Positions 4,201-47,949 of a stretch of 47,949 nt of DNA are shown here, one piece after another (within the stretch, counting starts at the first letter, position 1; each line of letters opens with the position of its first letter). A model generated the notes under the pieces. It worked only from the letters and a program-made list of their open reading frames with translations. It was not told the origin of the DNA and did no database searches. A program made the translations under genes and the position numbers. This DNA comes from Myxococcaceae bacterium (lineage in GTDB: Bacteria; Myxococcota; Myxococcia; Myxococcales; Myxococcaceae): the NCBI GenBank assembly GCA_016926755.1, contig JAFGNZ010000256.1:1-47949 (forward strand). Direction: 5' to 3'.

Positions 4201-4673
4201 GCGCGCCCACGCTGACGCGCACCCTGCGCTCGGCGTCTCCGGAGGAGACACACCGCCTCGGCGTGCGGTTGGGAGAGCTGCTCCGGCCCGGCGACTTCGT
4301 CGGGCTCATTGGAGATCTGGGCGCGGGGAAGACGCACCTGGTGCGCGGGGTGGCCGAGGGTGCCCAGGTGCCCCGCTCGGAGGTGGCCAGCCCCACCTTC
4401 GCCATCGTCTATCCGTACAGTGGGCGCATCCCGCTGTACCACGCGGACCTCTACCGCATCGCGGACTACGACGAGCTCTACGCCACCGGCTTCCTCGAGC
4501 TGATCGGTGGCGAGGGGGCCGTGCTGGTGGAGTGGCTGGACCGCGTCCCCGAGGCGGCGCCGCGCGAGTACCTGCGCCTCACCCTGCGCCCCACGGGAGA
4601 GGACACGCGAGAGCTGCACGCCGAGGCCTTCGGGCGAAGGCCCGCGGAGCTGCTCGCCGCGTGGGCTCCCTGA
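4197..4673 (+). CDS. tsaE: tRNA t6A biosynthesis ATPase TsaE
   Basis: TsaE works with TsaB and TsaD to make N6-threonylcarbamoyladenosine at position 37 of ANN-decoding tRNAs. The 158-residue protein contains a P-loop (GDLGAGKTHLVRG), the following VASPTFAIVYPY segment and a Walker-B-like LYHADLYRI, all typical of the YjeE/TsaE family. The start ATG 4197 overlaps the nnr stop as ATGA, which implies translational coupling; nnr-tsaE linkage is common in bacteria. Confidence 0.93.
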   Translation: MSAPTLTRTLRSASPEETHRLGVRLGELLRPGDFVGLIGDLGAGKTHLVRGVAEGAQVPRSEVASPTFAIVYPYSGRIPLYHADLYRIADYDELYATGFLELIGGEGAVLVEWLDRVPEAAPREYLRLTLRPTGEDTRELHAEAFGRRPAELLAAWAP

Positions 4674-6803: not shown

Positions 6804-7559
6804 TCAGCGCCCCCAGCGCCCGCCCATGATGGGCGCGTTCCAGCTGTCCTCTCCGCTCGCCTTCACCCGGCCCGCGCCTCCGGAGAGCTCGAGCCGGTCC
6901 CTCTTGCCCAGCGGCAGCTGCAGCACCAGCGCCGCGCCGTAGTACAGCGTGGTGGCGCTCGCGTCCTGGCGGGAGAACACCTGGTGGACGCCGAGGAAGG
7001 GCACCACCCCCAGGGCCACCCGCTCCTCGGGGCTGAAGTAGATCGCGGTGGACGTCTCGGCGCCGACGATGCTGCCGGGCCCTCCGCGCGAGTCGAGGCC
7101 GAAGTCCGTCGCGCCGCGCACCACCAGCGCGGGCGCCACGCCGAACGTCGGACCGCCGAACCAGGTCGACACGCCCCCGTAGAGCCCATAGCCCGGCAGC
7201 GGGAGCGGGTAGTAGATCTCTCCCTGCACGCCCAGGTGCAGCGAGAGCTTCTCCGTGAGCGGCTTGGACAGCGCCAGATCGTAGGCCACCGACCACTGCC
7301 GCGTGGAGAAGCTGTTGCGATCGCCGGAGAAGTCCTGCTCCTGGGGATTGAAGCTGGTACGTGCCGCGAGCGGGGCCGACAGGCGCGGGCCGCTGCGCAG
7401 GCCCACCTGGACGTAGCTGTCCGTGGGGTGGCCCGGGCCCAGCCGCATCACCATGGGGCTCAGGGTGGTGGGCGCGCAGCCGGCCATCCACCCCAGCGCC
7501 ACCAGGGCCAGCACTCCCCAACTCACACACCTCGCAGAGGCAGGCCGCGCGGGGCGCAT
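6804..7559 (-). CDS. Lipoprotein with beta-barrel-like pattern, inserted between hutU and hutI
   Basis: The 251-residue protein has a type II signal peptide (VSWGVLALVALGWMAGC, lipidation at Cys28). The mature part alternates glycine and aromatic residues in strand-like stretches (LYGGVSTWFGGPTFGVAPALVV, ATTLYYGAALVLQLPL), which suggests an outer-membrane or surface beta-structure. Its ATG overlaps the hutU stop as TAATG, and it ends four bases before hutI, so it is co-expressed with histidine catabolism. I do not recognise the family. A role in substrate entry or envelope sensing is only inferred from position. Confidence 0.75.
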   Translation of the reverse strand: MRPARPASARCVSWGVLALVALGWMAGCAPTTLSPMVMRLGPGHPTDSYVQVGLRSGPRLSAPLAARTSFNPQEQDFSGDRNSFSTRQWSVAYDLALSKPLTEKLSLHLGVQGEIYYPLPLPGYGLYGGVSTWFGGPTFGVAPALVVRGATDFGLDSRGGPGSIVGAETSTAIYFSPEERVALGVVPFLGVHQVFSRQDASATTLYYGAALVLQLPLGKRDRLELSGGAGRVKASGEDSWNAPIMGGRWGR

Positions 7560-19135: not shown

Positions 19136-19366
19136 CTAGTCGCGCACATCCCTCAGGTCGGGGAGTTTGTCCGGGTCGATCTTCAGCGCGATGCACAGCC
19201 GCGTCAGCGTGGCGACGCTGGGCAGCAGCCGGCCGCGCTCAATGCCCCCGTACGTCATGGGGTGCAGCTCGGTCCGCTGGGCGACCTCCTCCTGTGTCAG
19301 CCCGGCGCGCTCTCGGGCTGCTCGGATGGCGGCCCCAAGGGCCAGGGCCCGCTCTCTCTGACTCAT
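19136..19366 (-). CDS. Small XRE-family regulator divergent from a kinase-like gene (copy 1)
   Basis: The 76-residue protein is little more than a helix-turn-helix: AIRAARERAGLTQEEVAQRT (helices 1-2) and YGGIERGRLLPSVATLTRLC (recognition and following helix). It is close in sequence to the proteins at 46876-47241 and 47295-47522, all sharing AGLTxxxVA, YxxxERG and PxxxTLxxLC. Like the latter it is divergent from a kinase-like gene. It probably represses its own promoter and perhaps the divergent kinase gene; direct evidence is lacking. Confidence 0.88.
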   Translation of the reverse strand: MSQRERALALGAAIRAARERAGLTQEEVAQRTELHPMTYGGIERGRLLPSVATLTRLCIALKIDPDKLPDLRDVRD

Positions 19367-19533: not shown

Positions 19534-20763
19534 ATGCCGAGCTCGCCCTCGGTCCGTCCTCCAGCCCCCCCCCCCGTGCTCCTGCAGTCCGGGCGTACGA
19601 CGTATGAGCTCATCCGCCCGTTGGAACAGACGTGGCACGGCGAGCTGCTGCTCGCGCGGCGGCACTTCGGCGCGATGGCCGGGGACTACGTCGTCCTCAA
19701 GCGGCTGCGGCAGAACTGCCGGGAGGAGGACTACCGGCGGCTGATGGAGGAGGTGGCCATCACCGCGCGGCTGCGGCACCCCGCCATCGCGGGGATGCAC
19801 GATCTGGAGGGCACCGCGGCGGACCCCTACCTCGTGCTGGAGCACGTGGACGGGCACCGGCTGGACACCATCCTCGAGCTCGCCGGCCAGGTGGGCAAGC
19901 CGCTGTCGGAGGCCTTCGCGTGCTACGTGGGGACCGAGATCGCGGACGCGCTCCACCACGCCCACATGCTCTCCACCGAGCAGGGGCGCTGGCTGCGCCT
20001 GGTCCACCGCAACGTGTCCCCCCACACCATCATGGTGGGGGCCCGGGGGGAGGTGAAGCTCACCGACTTCGGCTCCGTCCTGGTGGAGCTCCCGGAGCGC
20101 CAGCGCACGGAGGACGACGTGCTGCCCGGCAACCTCGCCTACGCCTCTCCCGAGCTGACGAAGAAGGGGCGGATCGACGGGCGCACGGACCAGTTCTCGC
20201 TGGCCGCCGTGCTGCTGCACCTGCTCACGGGCCAGCCGCTGATCGAGGGCGCCGATCGCGTCACCCAGGAGCTGCTCGAGCTGCGCCGCCGGATGGAGGA
20301 GGCGGCGGCGCTGGGCAGCGGGGACCGGGCCGCGGCCGCGCTCCTGCTGGACCTCCGGACCCAGAGCCACAAGCTCACCTGGGCCTTCATCAACCAGCTC
20401 CGGGCGCTGAGCGCTCGGGATGTCGCGGAGGCCACACGGACGCTGTCCACGGGCCTGCGCCCCATCCTCCGCCGGGCCCTGGCTCCTCGCCCGTCGGACC
20501 GGTACAGCTCGTGCGAGGAGTTCTGCCATGAGCTGCGCCTGCACCTGTGGCGCATCGGACAGCTCTACGGCCGGCAGGAGGCGCAGGGCGAGGTGGCGGC
20601 CCTGCTCAAGGCGCTCGCGCGGAGCAAGCCTCGGAGCGCGCCTCCCCGGGCTGCCGCCGCGCCAGAGGCTGTCTCGGCGGCGCGGGGCGAGGGGCCGGTG
20701 TCGGGCCGGCGCGCTCAGGCCTCGGCGGAGCTGCGCCGCAAGCGGGAGGGCTCGTCCCGGTGA
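19534..20763 (+). CDS. Kinase-like protein with altered catalytic loop (pseudokinase 1)
   Basis: The 409-residue protein has a Hanks-type kinase fold: ATP-site lysine Lys56 in VVLKRLR, hinge LVLEHVDGHRL, DFG intact at 178-180 (KLTDFGSV) and YASPEL of the activation segment. The catalytic loop reads VHRNVSPHTIM: the catalytic Asp is Asn160 and the metal-binding Asn is Thr165. No GxGxxG loop is seen. Phosphotransfer is therefore doubtful. About 110 residues follow the kinase domain, including LYGRQEAQGEVAALL, which recurs in the paralogue at 45681. ATG 19534 is chosen for its ribosome binding site; a TTG further upstream is unlikely. It is divergent from a small XRE gene. Confidence 0.88.
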   Translation: MPSSPSVRPPAPPPVLLQSGRTTYELIRPLEQTWHGELLLARRHFGAMAGDYVVLKRLRQNCREEDYRRLMEEVAITARLRHPAIAGMHDLEGTAADPYLVLEHVDGHRLDTILELAGQVGKPLSEAFACYVGTEIADALHHAHMLSTEQGRWLRLVHRNVSPHTIMVGARGEVKLTDFGSVLVELPERQRTEDDVLPGNLAYASPELTKKGRIDGRTDQFSLAAVLLHLLTGQPLIEGADRVTQELLELRRRMEEAAALGSGDRAAAALLLDLRTQSHKLTWAFINQLRALSARDVAEATRTLSTGLRPILRRALAPRPSDRYSSCEEFCHELRLHLWRIGQLYGRQEAQGEVAALLKALARSKPRSAPPRAAAAPEAVSAARGEGPVSGRRAQASAELRRKREGSSR

Positions 20764-42516: not shown

Positions 42517-44025
42517 TCAAGTGTTTGCTTGTTCGAAGAAGTCTCGACCTGCAGGGGTTAATTGCACATTTGCGATTGTGTGATCTGCGGAAACGCTGGC
42601 TTTGATATATTTGTGATGCGCCAACCACTCGATCTCGCGCACTACCGATTCGCAATCTTCTTCGGGGACGCCATGAAGCACGTCAACCCAAATAGAAGGG
42701 CTTTTCATGTAATGCTCGTAACATGTCGACAGGATTCTCTGGCGGATCTCCTGATTCTTATTGCTTGGAGTATGCTTGGTGCTCGCATGATAGCGAGCGG
42801 CGTTTAAGTTGAATTTCTTTGGAACATTGAGAGAGGTGGCCCAATTGCTCGCTCCTTTTGGCAAAGGGGGTAGTGCTTGGGGGGTGGGTTCTGGTGGAGG
42901 GCTTTCTGAACCGAGTAATGAGGGACTGAGGGGAGCGTCTGATAAATCTTTCCCAGTGATGTTTTTGAACGTGCGCTGAGCATACGTGTTGGTCGGATAT
43001 CGCTGGCAGATGTGCTCGATTCGATCGAAAAGTTGCTCAAGGTCTGGAGAGAAGGTTTGAGACATGTAGAAAAGTGCAGATAGCCCGGATTCTACGTCGC
43101 GCTCCGATTGGGCCTGCTCAAGCCATTGGAATAGTTGCTCGCGTGCGTCAGGGACAGTTGTTGCGGAATAAGAGAGATGGAGTTCTGTCTTTGAACGCCG
43201 CGCAAAAGCGCCTCTAGCTAGAGCGTAGGTTAGTCGTGTAATGGCACGATGGGAATCAGGAGTGTCGCTTGTTGTGATTTGAATGAGCAACTTGTAGGCA
43301 TCTTCGTCGGTTGTTGTTGTGTCGGCGACGATGTTTGCTGCCGCATCGATAACATCGGATGGCGTCCCGTGCTTAGAGGCGGATAAGGCATTCCAACGAT
43401 TTAATCCCTCTTGCCTTGCTATGGGCCGATTTTGACTGATGAGCCGCTTGATAGTTGTCCATTCGGCGGCTTTGTCGTCTGGTGTAGATGCTGCAGGGAT
43501 GGTTTGTGGTGATGCCTGGGATGCCGAAGATTGTCCTTGGCGAGCGAACGGGGATGTACCAAGAGGTGGAGGCCCAGGGCGTGCGCCTAGTAGGCTGCGC
43601 AGGAGTTCCTCAAAGCCTTTCGGATCGCTTGGGTCGCCGCGTAGATCAATCATGAGCGCCGCTGCACACCAACTAGGAGCAGCCTCAGGCCATGAACCTT
43701 CGCGCAAAACGGGAATGAACTTTCTTCGGGGCACTCCAGCCATGACTTCCCCGGTAATCACCCCTCCTTCGTAGCCAACCCCGCCCTGGCGTTTGTCGGC
43801 TTTAGCCTTGTACCGGGGAGTGCAGATAAGTACTACGAAGTTGCTTTCTCGAATGGCTCCTTCCATGAAGGCAGAGAGTTCTTCTCCAGGATGGATGTTC
43901 CACCGGTCCAGAATTGCATCGACACCACTGCTTCTTAGGCGCGTGGCTAGTTCGAGGACCCACTCTTTGTGCTCTTCGCTGTCCCAGGAATAAGAAATGA
44001 AAACTCTTTGTGTGGTAGATTCCAT
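42517..44025 (-). CDS. TIR/SEFIR-domain protein, probable defence gene
   Basis: The 502-residue protein starts with a TIR/SEFIR-type domain at residues 6-140: VFISYSWDSEEHKEWVLELA, DAILDRWNIHPGEELSAFME, FVVLICTPRYKAKAD and GGVGYEGGVITGEVMAG. Glu86 or Glu93 could be the NADase glutamate of TIR enzymes. A Pro/Ser/Ala linker, a helical middle part and a C-terminal winged-helix-like segment (REIEWLAHHKYIKASV, VQLTPAGRDFFEQ) follow. ATG 44025 is chosen; an earlier TTG is unlikely. Base composition is clearly more AT-rich than that of neighbours, a sign of recent transfer. Bacterial TIR proteins on mobile elements usually act against phages. Confidence 0.82.
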   Translation of the reverse strand: MESTTQRVFISYSWDSEEHKEWVLELATRLRSSGVDAILDRWNIHPGEELSAFMEGAIRESNFVVLICTPRYKAKADKRQGGVGYEGGVITGEVMAGVPRRKFIPVLREGSWPEAAPSWCAAALMIDLRGDPSDPKGFEELLRSLLGARPGPPPLGTSPFARQGQSSASQASPQTIPAASTPDDKAAEWTTIKRLISQNRPIARQEGLNRWNALSASKHGTPSDVIDAAANIVADTTTTDEDAYKLLIQITTSDTPDSHRAITRLTYALARGAFARRSKTELHLSYSATTVPDAREQLFQWLEQAQSERDVESGLSALFYMSQTFSPDLEQLFDRIEHICQRYPTNTYAQRTFKNITGKDLSDAPLSPSLLGSESPPPEPTPQALPPLPKGASNWATSLNVPKKFNLNAARYHASTKHTPSNKNQEIRQRILSTCYEHYMKSPSIWVDVLHGVPEEDCESVVREIEWLAHHKYIKASVSADHTIANVQLTPAGRDFFEQANT

Positions 44026-44219
44026 GGTGCTCGAAGGGAAAGTTACTCGTCCTGAGGGTGCTGTGGAAGCGTCTCGATCCAAGCGACAAACTCATCAATC
44101 GAGGTTGTGGCCTAGAGGGCGAAGGCAATGTAGCAAAGAAGGAGGCCGCTCTGCGCACTTTCCGCACGGGCAGCATCCAAAAGAAAGCGGACGCCGCTTC
44201 TAGCGACGCCCGCCCTCGA

Positions 44220-44342: not shown

Positions 44343-45323
44343 CTACGCCGCTGCCAGCTGCACTTGGGCTTGGTCCGCAATGGCCGTCAATGCTTGCCTC
44401 TTCAGGAGCGAGGCACTGCCCATCCAGATAGACTCCAGGCGGGCAGCGTCAGCGGACTTGCCCTTGGTAGCCCTGATGCCCTTGTGATGATCGGCATACT
44501 CGCTGAAGGCCTGGAGTGCAGCCCACGCCGTGTTCTGGATGGGGCCCTCGATGCCACTGCCGGAGTGATACAGCTCGATCACCTTGCTGCGGGCCTTGAT
44601 CAGCTTCGGATGCTCAGCATCGTCCTCAGGAAGCGGGAGCACGAGGTTGATCACGTTCCGGAGCTGGTGCTCGCTGAAGCGGGTCATGGCCAGGTGATTG
44701 GCCAGCGCCTCGAAGTACTCGTAGCCCTGGAGTAGGCGCCGGAATGCGCGGCCAGCGTCCTCAAGTCTGGCCCTGGCGCTGGCCGTGTGGACGATATGCA
44801 GCTCCGCCCCGTCCCGTTCTCCGAGCGCAACGCCCAGTGTGTTCTGGCAGACGACCCGCGTGGCACAGTTTTTCAGGACAATGGCTGTGAGGCCATCATG
44901 CCCGCAATAGCCGAGGATGTAGCGCTTGATGATGCTCTTGTCGCCGCGGACACGCATCGGGTCGGGCAGTTCACCGAGGAGCCATCCACGCGAACCGTTG
45001 GGTCCCATTGTCCCCGCCGTATGAAAGATGCACCGTACGCCACCAGCCGCTTCCACGAGGGTCCGGGCCACCTCCTCGAACTGGATGACCTGATAACTAC
45101 GGTGAACGGTGGCGAGATACTGGCCCGTGTCGTCCCGGAAGAGCGCCTTCCTGTCCGGGATCGCCCCATCCAGGGGAGGGGCCGAGATCTCGTGCTCGAT
45201 CGCCCGGTAGAACCCAGCCGCCTGGACGATCTCGTCGTAGTCCGCGTTGGCCGGCAGTTGCGTCCCCAGTCCGTGCCAGGGCACCTTCCCCACGTACGCC
45301 ATTTTGTCGATGTTGTGAGCCAT
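44343..45323 (-). CDS. DUF932 phage/plasmid-like protein
   Basis: The 326-residue protein matches the DUF932 (phage/plasmid-like, YfjQ-related) group: MAHNIDKMAYVGKVPWHGLG at the start, QYLATVHRSYQVIQ, the catalogue phrase TRVVCQNTLGVALGE and SGSGIEGPIQNTAWAALQAF near the end. Its biochemical role is unknown, although it is common on phages, plasmids and integrative elements and is sometimes linked to replication or anti-defence. AAGGAGG six bases before ATG 45323 fixes the start. It supports the view that the element extends at least to here. Confidence 0.88.
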   Translation of the reverse strand: MAHNIDKMAYVGKVPWHGLGTQLPANADYDEIVQAAGFYRAIEHEISAPPLDGAIPDRKALFRDDTGQYLATVHRSYQVIQFEEVARTLVEAAGGVRCIFHTAGTMGPNGSRGWLLGELPDPMRVRGDKSIIKRYILGYCGHDGLTAIVLKNCATRVVCQNTLGVALGERDGAELHIVHTASARARLEDAGRAFRRLLQGYEYFEALANHLAMTRFSEHQLRNVINLVLPLPEDDAEHPKLIKARSKVIELYHSGSGIEGPIQNTAWAALQAFSEYADHHKGIRATKGKSADAARLESIWMGSASLLKRQALTAIADQAQVQLAAA

Positions 45324-45680
45324 GCTGCTCCTCCTTCGAGGTTGAGGGCGCACCTCGGGCGTGAGGACGCATGAGCTGCTGCCCACGCACCTATCGCTCG
45401 CGATGTGCTCTTCGTTGAGGTTGGAGGAAGACACCTAGCCGGGATGACCAGGCGCCGGCGGGCCGTAAAGCGCTCGCCATGTGCTTATACCCAATTGGGT
45501 TCGAGGGCTTCGCTCGCCGAGTTTGCCGCTGATCGGAGTTGCTGAGCTAGGCCCGAAGGGAAGGAAGTGGGATAGGCCTGTCAGGTGCAGCCTTGCTTTG
45601 CGGTAACGACTTCCTGTAGTACCTGTTGCGTTCAGTTCTGAGAGCCCCTGAGGGCAGGGCTCCTTCACACATGGAGATCC
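45324..45680. promoter_or_regulatory. Divergent region with ACCCAATTGGGT palindrome
   Basis: These 357 bases separate the DUF932 gene from the second kinase-like gene. They contain the perfect 12-bp palindrome ACCCAATTGGGT (45489-45500). A related dyad, ACCC-TTT-GGGT, precedes the first kinase-like gene. No gene is seen. Promoters for both flanking genes must lie here. Confidence 0.45.
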
Positions 45681-46856
45681 ATGATGAGTGACGCAGAGAA
45701 GCCCACCGAGAAGCGCACCGAGGATATGGGCGAGCAGGGAGGACGGGAGCTCCAGATCATGTTCGCCTTGGACGGCACCCGCTACGAGTCGATCAAGGTG
45801 CTGGAGCAGAGGGGGAATGGCGAGGTGCTGCTACTGGCGCAGCGTCATCTTCAAGGTGGGCCTGCGGGCCACGTCGCCATCAGGACCTTGCGCAGTCCGA
45901 GCCAGTTCATGAACCGTCAGCGACTGGTCGACGAGGTACGGCTGGCCTTCCTGCTCCATCACCCGGCAATCGCCCAAGTCCACCATCTGAAGATCCATAA
46001 GGGAGAGCCGCACATTGTTCTGGAGCACGTGGACGGCCCCTCGTTGGACACCGTTCTTAACCTCGTGGCGATGCTCGAGCGCCCGGTGTCACCGTCCTTC
46101 GCTCTCCACGTGGCATCCGAGATCGCCGATGCGCTCCACCACGCGCACACGCTCAGAGACGAGCAGGGGATGCCTCTGGGGGTCATCCACCGCGACGTGA
46201 GCCCGCGGAACATCTGCATGGATACGCATGGCGCGGTGAAGCTGACGCACTGCGGCGCGGCCTACTCGCTCATCGTGGGGAGAGAGGAGACGCCGCACTT
46301 ACTGCTCAAGGGGGATGTGGCGTACGCCTCGCCGGAGTACCTGCGCCGCCAGCACCTGGCGCCGTCATCGGACGTGTTCTCCCTCGGGCTCGTTCTGGTG
46401 GAGCTGCTGACAGGTCGCCACCTGTTTAACGTAGAGGATTCTGGAGAGGCGCGATCACTCTTCCTGCGTCCTGGCGAGCAAATGCCCAAGCCGGAGGAGT
46501 CGCCTTCGCTCCCCTTCGAGCTGATGCGGAGCCTGATCGAGCGCTACGGGCCGGAAGACGTGGAGAAGGCCCTGAAAGGCCTGCCGGAATCAGTCAAGGC
46601 CATCATCCACAAGGCCCTGCGTCCAACCCCTGCCGAGCGATACGCCACGGCCGCCGAGATGCGTGATGCACTCCTCGGAGCTCTTGGGCAGATGCCGCAG
46701 CCCTACGGCAGGAAAGAGGCCCGTGAGGAGGTCTCGAAACTGGTCGCCGATGCCAGCGCCCACCGTGATCGGCTGGAACTCCCGCAAGAGGGTATTTTCC
46801 CGGAGGGGCTGGACGCGCACGAGCTGTTCGTCCGCCCAGAAGGGAACCGGTCCTGA
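45681..46856 (+). CDS. Kinase-like protein lacking ATP-site Lys and DFG Asp (pseudokinase 2)
   Basis: The 391-residue protein is a paralogue of the one at 19534. The catalytic loop is intact (IHRDVSPRN, His170-Arg171-Asp172, Asn177), but the VAIK lysine is Arg68 (HVAIRTL) and the DFG motif reads HCG at 190-192 (KLTHCGAA). The glycine loop is degenerate (RGNGEVLLL). Shared features are HPAIAQVHHL, IVLEHVDGPSLDTVL, ASEIADALHHAHTL and the C-terminal PYGRKEAREEVSKLV. Two neighbouring ATG codons (45681, 45684) are possible starts. It is convergent with an XRE gene of the family linked to copy 1. Confidence 0.88.
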   Translation: MMSDAEKPTEKRTEDMGEQGGRELQIMFALDGTRYESIKVLEQRGNGEVLLLAQRHLQGGPAGHVAIRTLRSPSQFMNRQRLVDEVRLAFLLHHPAIAQVHHLKIHKGEPHIVLEHVDGPSLDTVLNLVAMLERPVSPSFALHVASEIADALHHAHTLRDEQGMPLGVIHRDVSPRNICMDTHGAVKLTHCGAAYSLIVGREETPHLLLKGDVAYASPEYLRRQHLAPSSDVFSLGLVLVELLTGRHLFNVEDSGEARSLFLRPGEQMPKPEESPSLPFELMRSLIERYGPEDVEKALKGLPESVKAIIHKALRPTPAERYATAAEMRDALLGALGQMPQPYGRKEAREEVSKLVADASAHRDRLELPQEGIFPEGLDAHELFVRPEGNRS

Positions 46857-46862
46857 GGGACC

Positions 46863-46897
46863 GGCGGGCGCTTCCCTACTTGAGGAGAGCGCCCGCC
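46863..46897. terminator. Strong hairpin over convergent gene ends
   Basis: GGCGGGCGCT (46863-46872) and AGCGCCCGCC (46888-46897) are perfect 10-bp arms. They flank the XRE stop and follow the kinase-like gene stop by seven bases, so the structure can serve both transcripts. No T-run follows. Confidence 0.65.
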
Positions 46898-47241
46898 ATA
46901 CCCGTGAGAGCCGAGAGCTGGGTCTCGTCCATCCGGAGCACCAGCGTGAGCAGCCGGCGTAGACTCGGCGCTGGTTCCTCCTGCTTTCCTCGAGAGCTCT
47001 TGGTGGGCTCGTTGGCGGCTCCTGAGCCCGACAGGCCGAGTAGATCATCCGAAGAGATGTGGAGCATGGTGCAGAGCTTGCGAAGTGTGGGGACGCTGGG
47101 CATCACCTTCCCGCGCTCCATGCGGCTGTAGACCATGGAGGTGATCTCCACCAGGGAGGCTACCTCTGCCTGGGTGAGCCCTGCACGTTGCCGGGCTGCA
47201 CGCGCGGCCTCGCCGATCATTTTCGCCAGATCTTCGTTCAT
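46876..47241 (-). CDS. XRE-family regulator next to kinase-like gene (copy 2)
   Basis: The 121-residue protein has the same helix-turn-helix as copies 1 and 3: ARAARQRAGLTQAEVASLVE, MVYSRMERGKVMPSVPTLRK and LCTMLHISSDDLLGL. A basic linker (NEPTKSSRGKQEE) leads to a 35-residue helical tail (LTLVLRMDETQLSALTGMAG) that the other copies lack and that may mediate dimerisation. It lies 53 bases downstream of copy 3 on the same strand, so both may be one transcript. Confidence 0.87.
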   Translation of the reverse strand: MNEDLAKMIGEAARAARQRAGLTQAEVASLVEITSMVYSRMERGKVMPSVPTLRKLCTMLHISSDDLLGLSGSGAANEPTKSSRGKQEEPAPSLRRLLTLVLRMDETQLSALTGMAGALLK

Positions 47242-47294
47242 GGGTGGACGGAAGAGTACCTGATAGAGCTATCCGGGTGGGGTTCGATTCGAGG

Positions 47295-47522
47295 TCACGC
47301 CTTCACGGTGGGCGAGCCGAGGAGCGTGTCCGATGAGACCCCGAAGAAGAGGCACAGATCGATGAGAGTCGAGGGCGTGGGCAGGATCTTGCCGCGCTCC
47401 ATCCGGGCATAGGCCAGCAAGGGGAGATCGATGCTTTGGGCTACCTGCTCCATGGTAAGCCCGGCATTGAGCCGGACGCTGTGGATCATCGTGCCGATGG
47501 TGTTTGCTAAGGGCTCGGACAT
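47295..47522 (-). CDS. Small XRE-family regulator divergent from a kinase gene (copy 3)
   Basis: The 75-residue protein is almost the same length as copy 1 and consists of the helix-turn-helix: SVRLNAGLTMEQVAQSIDL and YARMERGKILPTPSTLIDLC. ATG 47522 is preceded by GAGG at five bases and matches the start of the family; an in-frame start further upstream is less likely. It is divergent from the kinase gene at 47747, repeating the arrangement at 19136-19534. Confidence 0.85.
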   Translation of the reverse strand: MSEPLANTIGTMIHSVRLNAGLTMEQVAQSIDLPLLAYARMERGKILPTPSTLIDLCLFFGVSSDTLLGSPTVKA

Positions 47523-47746: not shown

Positions 47747-47949
47747 ATGACGGCTCTCCCATCTTTGGAGATTCCTCCTGGAACGGATGTCCGCGGCTTC
47801 CTGATCGAGGGGAAGTTGGGGGCTGGCGGCTTCGGCACGGTGTACCGGGCCCGTCGTGGCGAGCGCCTCTACGCGCTCAAGTTCATCCGCATCAAGGACG
47901 CGGGCGGCTGGGCGAAGCGCGAGGTGGAGAGCCTCCTGCGCGTCGCACA
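47747..47949 (+). CDS. Serine/threonine protein kinase, N-terminal part (cut by window edge)
   Basis: The frame starts at ATG 47747 and runs off the right edge after 67 codons. It shows an intact glycine loop (GKLGAGGFGTVYRARRG), the ATP-binding lysine in LYALKFIRI and the start of helix C (AKREVESLLRV). Unlike the two kinase-like proteins inside the window, all visible motifs are canonical, so it is probably an active kinase. It is divergent from the copy 3 XRE gene. Confidence 0.85.
   Translation, partial: MTALPSLEIPPGTDVRGFLIEGKLGAGGFGTVYRARRGERLYALKFIRIKDAGGWAKREVESLLRVA

What the first reader, a model, noticed from the sequence alone, without database searches (positions are those of the whole stretch)
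45681..47522. Paralogous pseudokinase degenerated at complementary sites, again beside XRE genes
This paralogue of the 19534 protein keeps HRD and the loop Asn but has Arg68 for the VAIK Lys and HCG for DFG. The first copy shows the opposite losses. Both retain the same C-terminal LYGR/PYGR-x-EA motif. Two independent ways of abolishing catalysis while preserving the fold suggest selection for a non-catalytic role, or two half-active proteins that could function as a heteromer.
Basis: partly seen in the sequence, partly recalled or inferred. Interest (0 to 1): 0.75.

Follow-up and report, generated by a model that had tools for sequence, protein, structure and literature searches.

The report
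Pseudokinase paired with membrane kinase
A gene of a soil-dwelling myxobacterium makes a protein that looks like a kinase but has lost parts needed to work as one; it belongs to a family of such proteins, many of which sit beside a complete membrane kinase and DNA-binding regulators, so it probably controls a kinase rather than acting as one.

Summary
The 391-aa protein at 45681-46856 (B) keeps HRD and the loop Asn but has Arg68 for the VAIK Lys and HCG for DFG; copy A (19534-20763) keeps Lys and DFG but has HRN and Thr for Asn. Both belong to a family of roughly 390-aa stand-alone kinase-fold proteins of Myxococcaceae. Of 102 genes read, 76 lost at least one of four catalytic residues, clade by clade; all 102 lack the catalytic-loop Lys and 101 the P+1 Thr, while six structural residues never vary, and dN/dS in A's and B's groups is 0.16-0.43. 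This fits selection for a non-catalytic role. The A+B heteromer is not supported: A's clade occurs without B's in 5 of 8 genomes, and their gene contexts differ. The stronger finding is the neighbour: 54 of 102 genes lie within 5 kb of a kinase, and 52 of 55 such kinases keep all four residues. Most are membrane kinases sharing one C-terminal domain, and distances within pairs correlate (r 0.94, 51 pairs). B's kinase starts at 47747 and is cut by the contig end. Best reading: pseudokinase partner of a membrane kinase, with XRE regulators as likely output. Binding and function are inferred.

The parts
45681..46856 (+). Pseudokinase B: kinase fold with Arg68 (VAIK), HRD and loop Asn kept, HCG for DFG, Ser174 for the catalytic-loop Lys, Asp212 for the P+1 Thr
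46876..47241 (-). XRE1, 121-aa helix-turn-helix protein, convergent with B
   Evidence: same place in L120/L130
47295..47522 (-). XRE2, 75-aa helix-turn-helix protein, upstream of XRE1 on the same strand
47747..47949 (+). First 67 codons of a canonical Ser/Thr kinase (GAGGFG loop and ALK lysine), divergent from XRE2, cut by the end of the contig
   Evidence: 90% identical over 71 aligned residues to the whole kinase at the same place in L130
19534..20763 (+). Pseudokinase A: Lys and DFG kept, HRN for HRD, Thr for the loop Asn
19136..19366 (-). XRE gene of A, 76 aa, divergent from A; same layout in all 8 members of A's clade

Best explanation
B is a pseudokinase: a complete kinase fold kept by selection that no longer does ordinary Ser/Thr phosphotransfer. 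It is one part of a multi-copy myxobacterial signalling cassette made of (i) a membrane-anchored, apparently intact Ser/Thr kinase with a distinctive domain after its TM helix, (ii) this soluble pseudokinase, and often (iii) one or two XRE-type DNA-binding proteins. Shown here: the motif losses and their stability, the predicted fold, the linkage, the intact partner, and the parallel divergence of partners. Inferred: that the pseudokinase binds its cassette kinase as allosteric partner or as adaptor for a substrate; that the XRE proteins are the output, for instance repressors of the divergent XRE/kinase promoters that are changed through the kinase-pseudokinase pair; and that the system serves switches between cell states. 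The last step leans on Myxococcus xanthus, where kinase/HTH-Xre clusters of similar make-up change strongly between phase variants (PMC3986340).
For: 76 of 102 family genes lack at least one of K68, D172, N177, D190; 102 of 102 lack the catalytic-loop Lys, 101 of 102 the P+1 Thr, 95 of 102 the GxGxxG loop, yet R171, G184, P218, E219, D231 and R320 are kept in 102 of 102. Purifying selection: dN/dS 0.17-0.23 in B's group. Confident bilobal models (pLDDT 85.9 and 87.1), best structural match PknB (5u94: Z 30.1, rmsd 1.8, 255 aligned for B; Z 29.6, rmsd 1.9, 253 for A). Linkage within 5 kb: kinase 54, XRE 62, either 85 of 102; in 20 control regions 1 and 1. 52 of 55 neighbour kinases keep all four residues and 54 of 55 the P+1 Thr. 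47 of 55 have a hydropathy-predicted TM helix; 49 of 55 carry one C-terminal domain at E<1e-6 (9 of them its seed), and none of 79 generic-kinase loci does at E<=0.01. Distances of 51 pairs correlate, r 0.935; 0.89-0.99 within the four genomes with five or more pairs.
Against: No binding, activity or regulation was measured. 17 of 102 family genes have neither a kinase nor an XRE gene found within 5 kb, and 31 of 102 have an XRE gene but no kinase, A included; some of these regions are cut by contig ends. Parallel divergence would also follow from duplication as a block. In B's own genome the rest of the cassette kinase was not found (best match to its remainder 38%), so the partner may be lost or unassembled. 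In G038 the B orthologue is N-terminally truncated and has no kinase near, and two relatives in the genus (G015, G030; L141, L144) have an XRE gene but no kinase. 26 of 102 genes keep all four main residues and may be active. 10 of 55 neighbour kinases themselves have Ser at the catalytic-loop Lys, so that loss alone does not prove inactivity.
Confidence: 0.6

Rival explanations
1. Atypical enzymes: the altered site supports weak kinase activity or another ATP-dependent reaction, as SelO (AMPylation) and SidJ (glutamylation) do.
For: The pocket residues are changed in a limited, repeated way (K68 always to Arg, D172 only to Asn or Ala); alpha-C Glu is kept in 98 of 102; 26 of 102 keep all four main residues; other bacterial pseudokinases do have other activities (PMC12599244, section 4 part 1 read).
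Against: Losses hit every one of the four residues in some clade and combine freely, which one shared new reaction would not predict; GxGxxG is kept in only 7 of 102.
Confidence: 0.17
2. Linkage without partnership: the genes spread as a block, and the family protein acts on something other than the neighbouring kinase or XRE protein.
For: 17 of 102 genes stand without either neighbour and 31 of 102 have an XRE gene but no kinase; co-divergence is also expected from block duplication.
Against: The same kinase family recurs in two different layouts (kinase directly upstream on the same strand; or beyond the XRE genes), so rearrangement kept the association.
Confidence: 0.15
3. Decay: the copies are kinases on the way to becoming pseudogenes.
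For: The B orthologue of G038 is truncated; B alone has Cys in DFG; A's group has dN/dS up to 0.43.
Against: Same losses shared across species, long open frames in B and L130, dN/dS of B's group 0.17-0.23 against 0.21-0.35 in four relatives intact at the four sites.
Confidence: 0.05
4. One reading: A and B complement one another's missing residues.
For: Their losses at the four main residues do not overlap.
Against: Both lack the catalytic-loop Lys and the P+1 Thr; A's clade is present without B's in 5 of 8 genomes; different contexts; these residues act within one active site (established knowledge).
Confidence: 0.03

Closest known systems
Kinase / HTH-Xre gene clusters of Myxococcus xanthus that change in phase variation (MXAN_4371-4373, 4479-4481, 6998, 7370-7371; PMC3986340)
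   Same: Same make-up: kinase-annotated genes next to one or two Xre genes, and two adjacent kinase genes. Family genes in Myxococcus-type genome G151 lie at 5.37 Mb (family-XRE-kinase), 5.55 Mb (family-XRE-XRE-kinase), 8.64 Mb (family-XRE-kinase) and 9.17 Mb (kinase-family), in the order of those numbers. That they are the same loci is inference.
   Different: In the parts I read, the paper calls them kinases or kinase-like and does not discuss lost catalytic residues or pairing. Its four PKc-like proteins (596-597 aa) are too long for this family and are not claimed.
The 11 pseudokinases among 99 STPKs of M. xanthus (PMC6791715, citing Perez et al. 2008)
   Same: Myxobacterial kinases lacking at least one of three catalytic residues; seven of the 11 are developmentally regulated.
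   Different: No gene list was available to me; overlap with this family is not tested.
Bacterial Ser/Thr pseudokinase families (PMC12599244: ActPs1-3, GLW, CP1, DYD, DLHK)
   Same: Kinase fold with lost motifs; CP1 likewise mixes members with and without losses.
   Different: Those are named for proteobacteria, cyanobacteria or actinobacteria; the text does not contain 'myxo'. No profile comparison was made.
BldB-WhiJ-AbaA paralogous loci of Streptomyces (PMC10294661)
   Same: Works like: many paralogous small loci, each with an XRE-type regulator and a partner, tied to development.
   Different: Partner proteins are not kinases; no DUF397-type hit in the window proteins scanned.
Eukaryotic kinase-pseudokinase pairs (LKB1-STRAD, HER2-HER3; recalled)
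   Same: A dead kinase fold controlling an active one is the proposed working principle.
   Different: No binding shown here; by sequence and structure the nearest solved relative is PknB.

Membership tests
Protein kinase fold (Pfam PF00069) | Profile match above the curated cut-off and complete bilobal fold | tested here: met
   B 95.9 and A 83.9 bits against 31.7; models match PknB at Z 30.1 and 29.6
Active Ser/Thr kinase | VAIK Lys | tested here: not met
   B has Arg68; A has Lys
Active Ser/Thr kinase | HRD Asp and loop Asn | tested here: met
   met in B; not met in A (HRN, Thr)
Active Ser/Thr kinase | DFG Asp | tested here: not met
   B has His190; A has Asp
Active Ser/Thr kinase | Catalytic-loop Lys and P+1 Thr | tested here: not met
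   B Ser174 and Asp212; absent in 102 and 101 of 102 family genes
[quoted passage not shown]
   B lacks VAIK Lys and DFG Asp, A lacks HRD Asp
Pseudokinase | No phosphotransfer in vitro | not testable with these tools
   needs an assay
Phase-variation kinase/Xre clusters of M. xanthus | Same genes as MXAN_4371-4373, 4479-4481, 7370-7371 | tested here: inconclusive
   order and layout agree in G151, but DK1622 proteins by name were not available
Known bacterial pseudokinase families (ActPs, GLW, CP1, DYD, DLHK) | Family-specific sequence constraints | not tested
   no profiles of these families at hand
BldB/WhiJ loci | DUF397-type partner next to the XRE gene | tested here: not met
   not among the Pfam hits of the seven window proteins scanned, E<=0.01
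Anti-phage kinase systems (PADLOC) | Specific full-length match to a defence kinase model | tested here: inconclusive
   kinase-domain matches to many models (best PD-T4-6, 139.1 bits, residues 33-257 of B); the library gives no cut-off

The most novel reading that the evidence does not exclude
Myxococcaceae use an unnamed, multi-copy signalling system in which each membrane kinase has its own dedicated pseudokinase partner, often with its own XRE regulator, the pairs being insulated from one another as in two-component systems. Catalysis in the pseudokinase was lost again and again because only its binding role is selected.
Probability: 0.4. Interest if true: 0.78.

Novelty: new variant of a known kind. 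Interest (0 to 1): 0.64.

Why it matters
Bacterial Ser/Thr pseudokinases are mostly without known function (PMC12599244). Here is a family with many natural replicates, more than half of them beside a probable active partner or a probable output regulator, in myxobacteria that can be manipulated genetically. It makes testable what a bacterial pseudokinase does to a kinase, how paralogous kinase pairs stay specific, and what the kinase/Xre clusters do in phase variation.

Tried and rejected
The scan of genome contigs with B alone found no relative.

Three hits outside family f1 are 627-670-aa open frames that match only the kinase core; the two that passed my score limit keep K, HRD, N, DFG and the P+1 Thr (L250, L251). 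I treat them as outgroup, not members.

An exact-palindrome scan of the XRE-kinase intervals (window, L120 and 16 B-type loci) showed no palindrome shared between cassette types, only among the close relatives L132, L133 and L135 and, for a second one, also L134. NCBIfam gave no match above a curated cut-off for B, A or the L130 kinase. No complex could be predicted (single-chain jobs only). In the VIA list the pseudokinase STRAD (2wtk_E) appears, but with rmsd 9.9, so I draw nothing from it.

Rows dropped and biases: of the 106 rows, 93 were fetched; 13, all in its lowest-scoring part, were not. Two own-genome genes (L228, L229) and seven B-like loci of other genomes were added: 102 in all. 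One search printed 103 rows because B stood in twice. Profile A2 leans towards B. The XRE profile was built from three window proteins. Several regions end within 5 kb of the gene, among them the window (B's own kinase start is too short to be counted). Among the 55 kinases, L202's is itself family-like (402 aa, all four residues lost) and L204's is cut at the region edge; both are counted among the three exceptions. L191, L202, L204 and L228's second kinase were left out of the 51 pairs. The Fisher test (p 2e-16) treats related loci as independent and is not a probability. One search is a first version of the kinase count and is superseded. The tree is a quick one without bootstrap, and change counts are minima on it. 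dN/dS is by Nei-Gojobori with strong GC bias unmodelled. Searches score at most 150 candidates per genome (9).

A lead that failed: I first took the G151 gene at 2.39 Mb for MXAN_1892-1895, but no XRE gene lies within its 1.5-kb flanks; I do not claim it.

Literature: that the pairing is not described rests, in an open-access library only. Read: PMC3986340 abstract, passages, section 12 (part 1 of 2) and discussion; PMC12599244 abstract, section 4 (part 1 of 2), discussion and passages; PMC6791715 passages; PMC10294661 abstract and outline. Perez et al. 2008 is not held, so its kinome was not seen.

Full report
Observation. The window carries an intact 391-aa ORF at 45681-46856 + (B), followed by two XRE genes on the other strand, 46876-47241 and 47295-47522. 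B is a protein kinase homologue (Pkinase 95.9 bits). The paralogue A at 19534-20763 + (83.9 bits) is 37% identical. B has Arg68, HRDVSPRN and HCG; A has Lys, HRNVSPHT and DFG. Both have YGR-x-EA near the C-terminus, where a C-terminal helix begins in the AlphaFold models (B 344-361, A 347-364; mean pLDDT 85.9 and 87.1).

The family. The own genome (G000, 9.59 Mb, 409 contigs) has 144 kinase-like matches to B among 150 scored candidates. Ten are stand-alone proteins with full-length matches to a profile made from these same ten, 460-544 bits; the next matches in that genome reach 220 bits and cover only the kinase core or less. In other genomes family members score 258-484 bits against the same profile. 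Of the own ten, two (L167, and L155 with DFA) keep Lys, HRD Asp, Asn and DFG Asp. In 195 genomes of the phylum 67 had a match at E<=1e-75: 64 in the window's family f1, and 3 outside it that are longer kinases. In a sample of 59 genomes of f1, 29 had a match to B at E<=1e-45, in 8 of 26 genera. Up to 15 copies per genome pass E<=1e-85 in the 12 genomes.

Active-site losses. For 102 genes (composition under Tried and rejected) I read the motif residues from an alignment. At least one of K68, D172, N177, D190 is lost in 76 of 102. By site: K68 30 (always Arg), D172 22 (Ala 13, Asn 9), N177 59, D190 25, by at least 4, 4, 6 and 9 changes on a quick tree. Eight combinations of losses occur. The losses go by clade: D172N plus N177T in all 8 members of A's clade, K68R plus D190H in all 3 of B's. 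B's nearest relatives outside its clade by path, L132-L134, and L135 with them, keep all four.

What does not vary. R171, G184, P218, E219, D231 and R320 are kept in 102 of 102, alpha-C Glu85 in 98. The catalytic-loop Lys is present in 0 of 102, the P+1 Thr in 1, the GxGxxG loop in 7. So even members that keep the four main residues lack features usual in Ser/Thr kinases. The catalytic-loop Lys is a weaker sign than the P+1 Thr, because 10 of 55 neighbour kinases also have Ser there. dN/dS is 0.225 (B-L130), 0.170 (B-L131), 0.201 (L130-L131), 0.16-0.43 in A's group, and 0.21-0.35 in four relatives intact at the four sites. One result goes the other way: the B orthologue of G038 begins only at about residue 55-60 of B, its XRE gene now lies upstream on the same strand, and no kinase was found in 18 kb.

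The neighbours. The window, which is a whole contig, ends 203 bases into a gene divergent from XRE2, whose first 67 codons are a canonical kinase start. In the orthologous locus L130 the order is family> XRE1< XRE2< kinase>. Over the 102 loci a kinase lies within 5 kb in 54, an XRE gene in 62, either in 85, both in 31. In 20 evenly spaced 11.1-kb control regions of G023 and G038 a kinase occurs in 1 and an XRE gene in 1. Layouts: kinase> family> 21; XRE< family> 18 (all 8 of A's clade among them); family> XRE< (XRE<) kinase> 20; alone 17; the other 26 are rarer orders. In the 21 loci of the first layout the kinase frame ends 31-328 nt before the family match.

The partner. Of 55 neighbour kinases 52 keep all four residues; the exceptions are L228 (HRN), L202 (itself family-like) and L204 (cut at the region edge). 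The P+1 Thr is present in 54 of 55, the catalytic-loop Lys in 43, GxGxxG in 31. 47 of 55 have a TM helix by a simple hydropathy window. 49 of 55 match one C-terminal domain profile at E<1e-6, in both main layouts; nine of these are its seed; no frame of 100 aa or more in 79 loci with other kinases matches at E<=0.01. Distances among family proteins and among their kinases correlate at r 0.935 over 51 pairs, and 0.89, 0.96, 0.98 and 0.99 inside the four genomes with five or more pairs. Pairs have stayed together while diverging; duplication as a block would also give this. In B's own genome the rest of the kinase was not found: the best match to it is 38% identical.

The heteromer idea. A's clade is found in 8 genomes and B's in 3 of them; a search of all 7 genomes of the genus gave only G059 and G038 as close orthologues of B, 78% and 84%. 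In G038 A is whole and B truncated. Both lack the catalytic-loop Lys and P+1 Thr.

Comparison with what is known. In M. xanthus, Dziewanowska et al. 2014 (PMC3986340) report kinase and HTH-Xre genes that change between yellow and tan variants: MXAN_4371-4373 (+132, +96, +9), 4479-4481 (+43, +26, +31), 6998 (+109), 7370-7371 (+187, +99). In genome G151 family genes lie at 5.37, 5.55, 8.64 and 9.17 Mb of 9.32 Mb, in the layouts family-XRE-kinase, family-XRE-XRE-kinase, family-XRE-kinase and kinase-family, the order and make-up of those MXAN groups. By this inference B's cassette corresponds to MXAN_4479-4481 and the gene after them. The gene at 5.55 Mb keeps all four residues; those at 5.37, 8.64 and 9.17 Mb do not. 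PMC6791715 (passage) counts 11 pseudokinases among 99 STPKs, seven of them developmentally regulated. The bacterial pseudokinase review PMC12599244 does not contain 'myxo'. The searches listed under Tried and rejected found no description of the pairing.

Mechanism. Shown: altered active sites, kept frame and predicted fold, frequent pairing with an intact membrane kinase of one family, frequent XRE neighbours. Inferred: the kinase senses through its C-terminal domain; the pseudokinase binds it as activator, inhibitor or adaptor; the XRE proteins, divergent from the kinase in B-type cassettes, hold the cassette and perhaps other genes down until the pair changes them. I put this at 0.6 as a whole, and B being dead as a Ser/Thr kinase at about 0.85.

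Noticed in passing
window 42517-44082 -: TIR/SEFIR-domain protein with a strong match to PADLOC's bSEFIR defence model (223 bits, E 2.8e-66), two genes away from B.
   Followed up: no
window 44343-45434 -: DUF932 protein (151.7 bits) directly before B, on the other strand.
   Followed up: no
L011 / L131 (genome G038): The B orthologue is truncated at its N-terminus and its XRE gene has moved to lie upstream on the same strand: a rearranged cassette.
   Followed up: partly
G038:C1:7343075-7344256 and 7371853-7373034: Two family genes 29 kb apart with the same score (320.0 bits), apparently a recent duplication.
   Followed up: no
L204, L205, L208 (genome G014): Three family genes on very short branches, each near a kinase and an XRE gene: recent cassette copies in one genome.
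   Followed up: no
L202:3763-4902 + (genome G011): A second family-like gene directly before the first, with all four catalytic residues replaced (Glu, Ala, Arg, His).
   Followed up: no
L142 (genome G053), interval between XRE and kinase: A perfect 22-bp palindrome three times at 33-nt spacing, a possible operator array or other repeat element.
   Followed up: no
neighbour kinases, for example in L130 and L136: After the TM helix a second short hydrophobic run ends in Ala-Cys or Gly-Cys before the shared C-terminal domain, somewhat like a lipoprotein signal, as if a lipoprotein gene had fused to the kinase.
   Followed up: no
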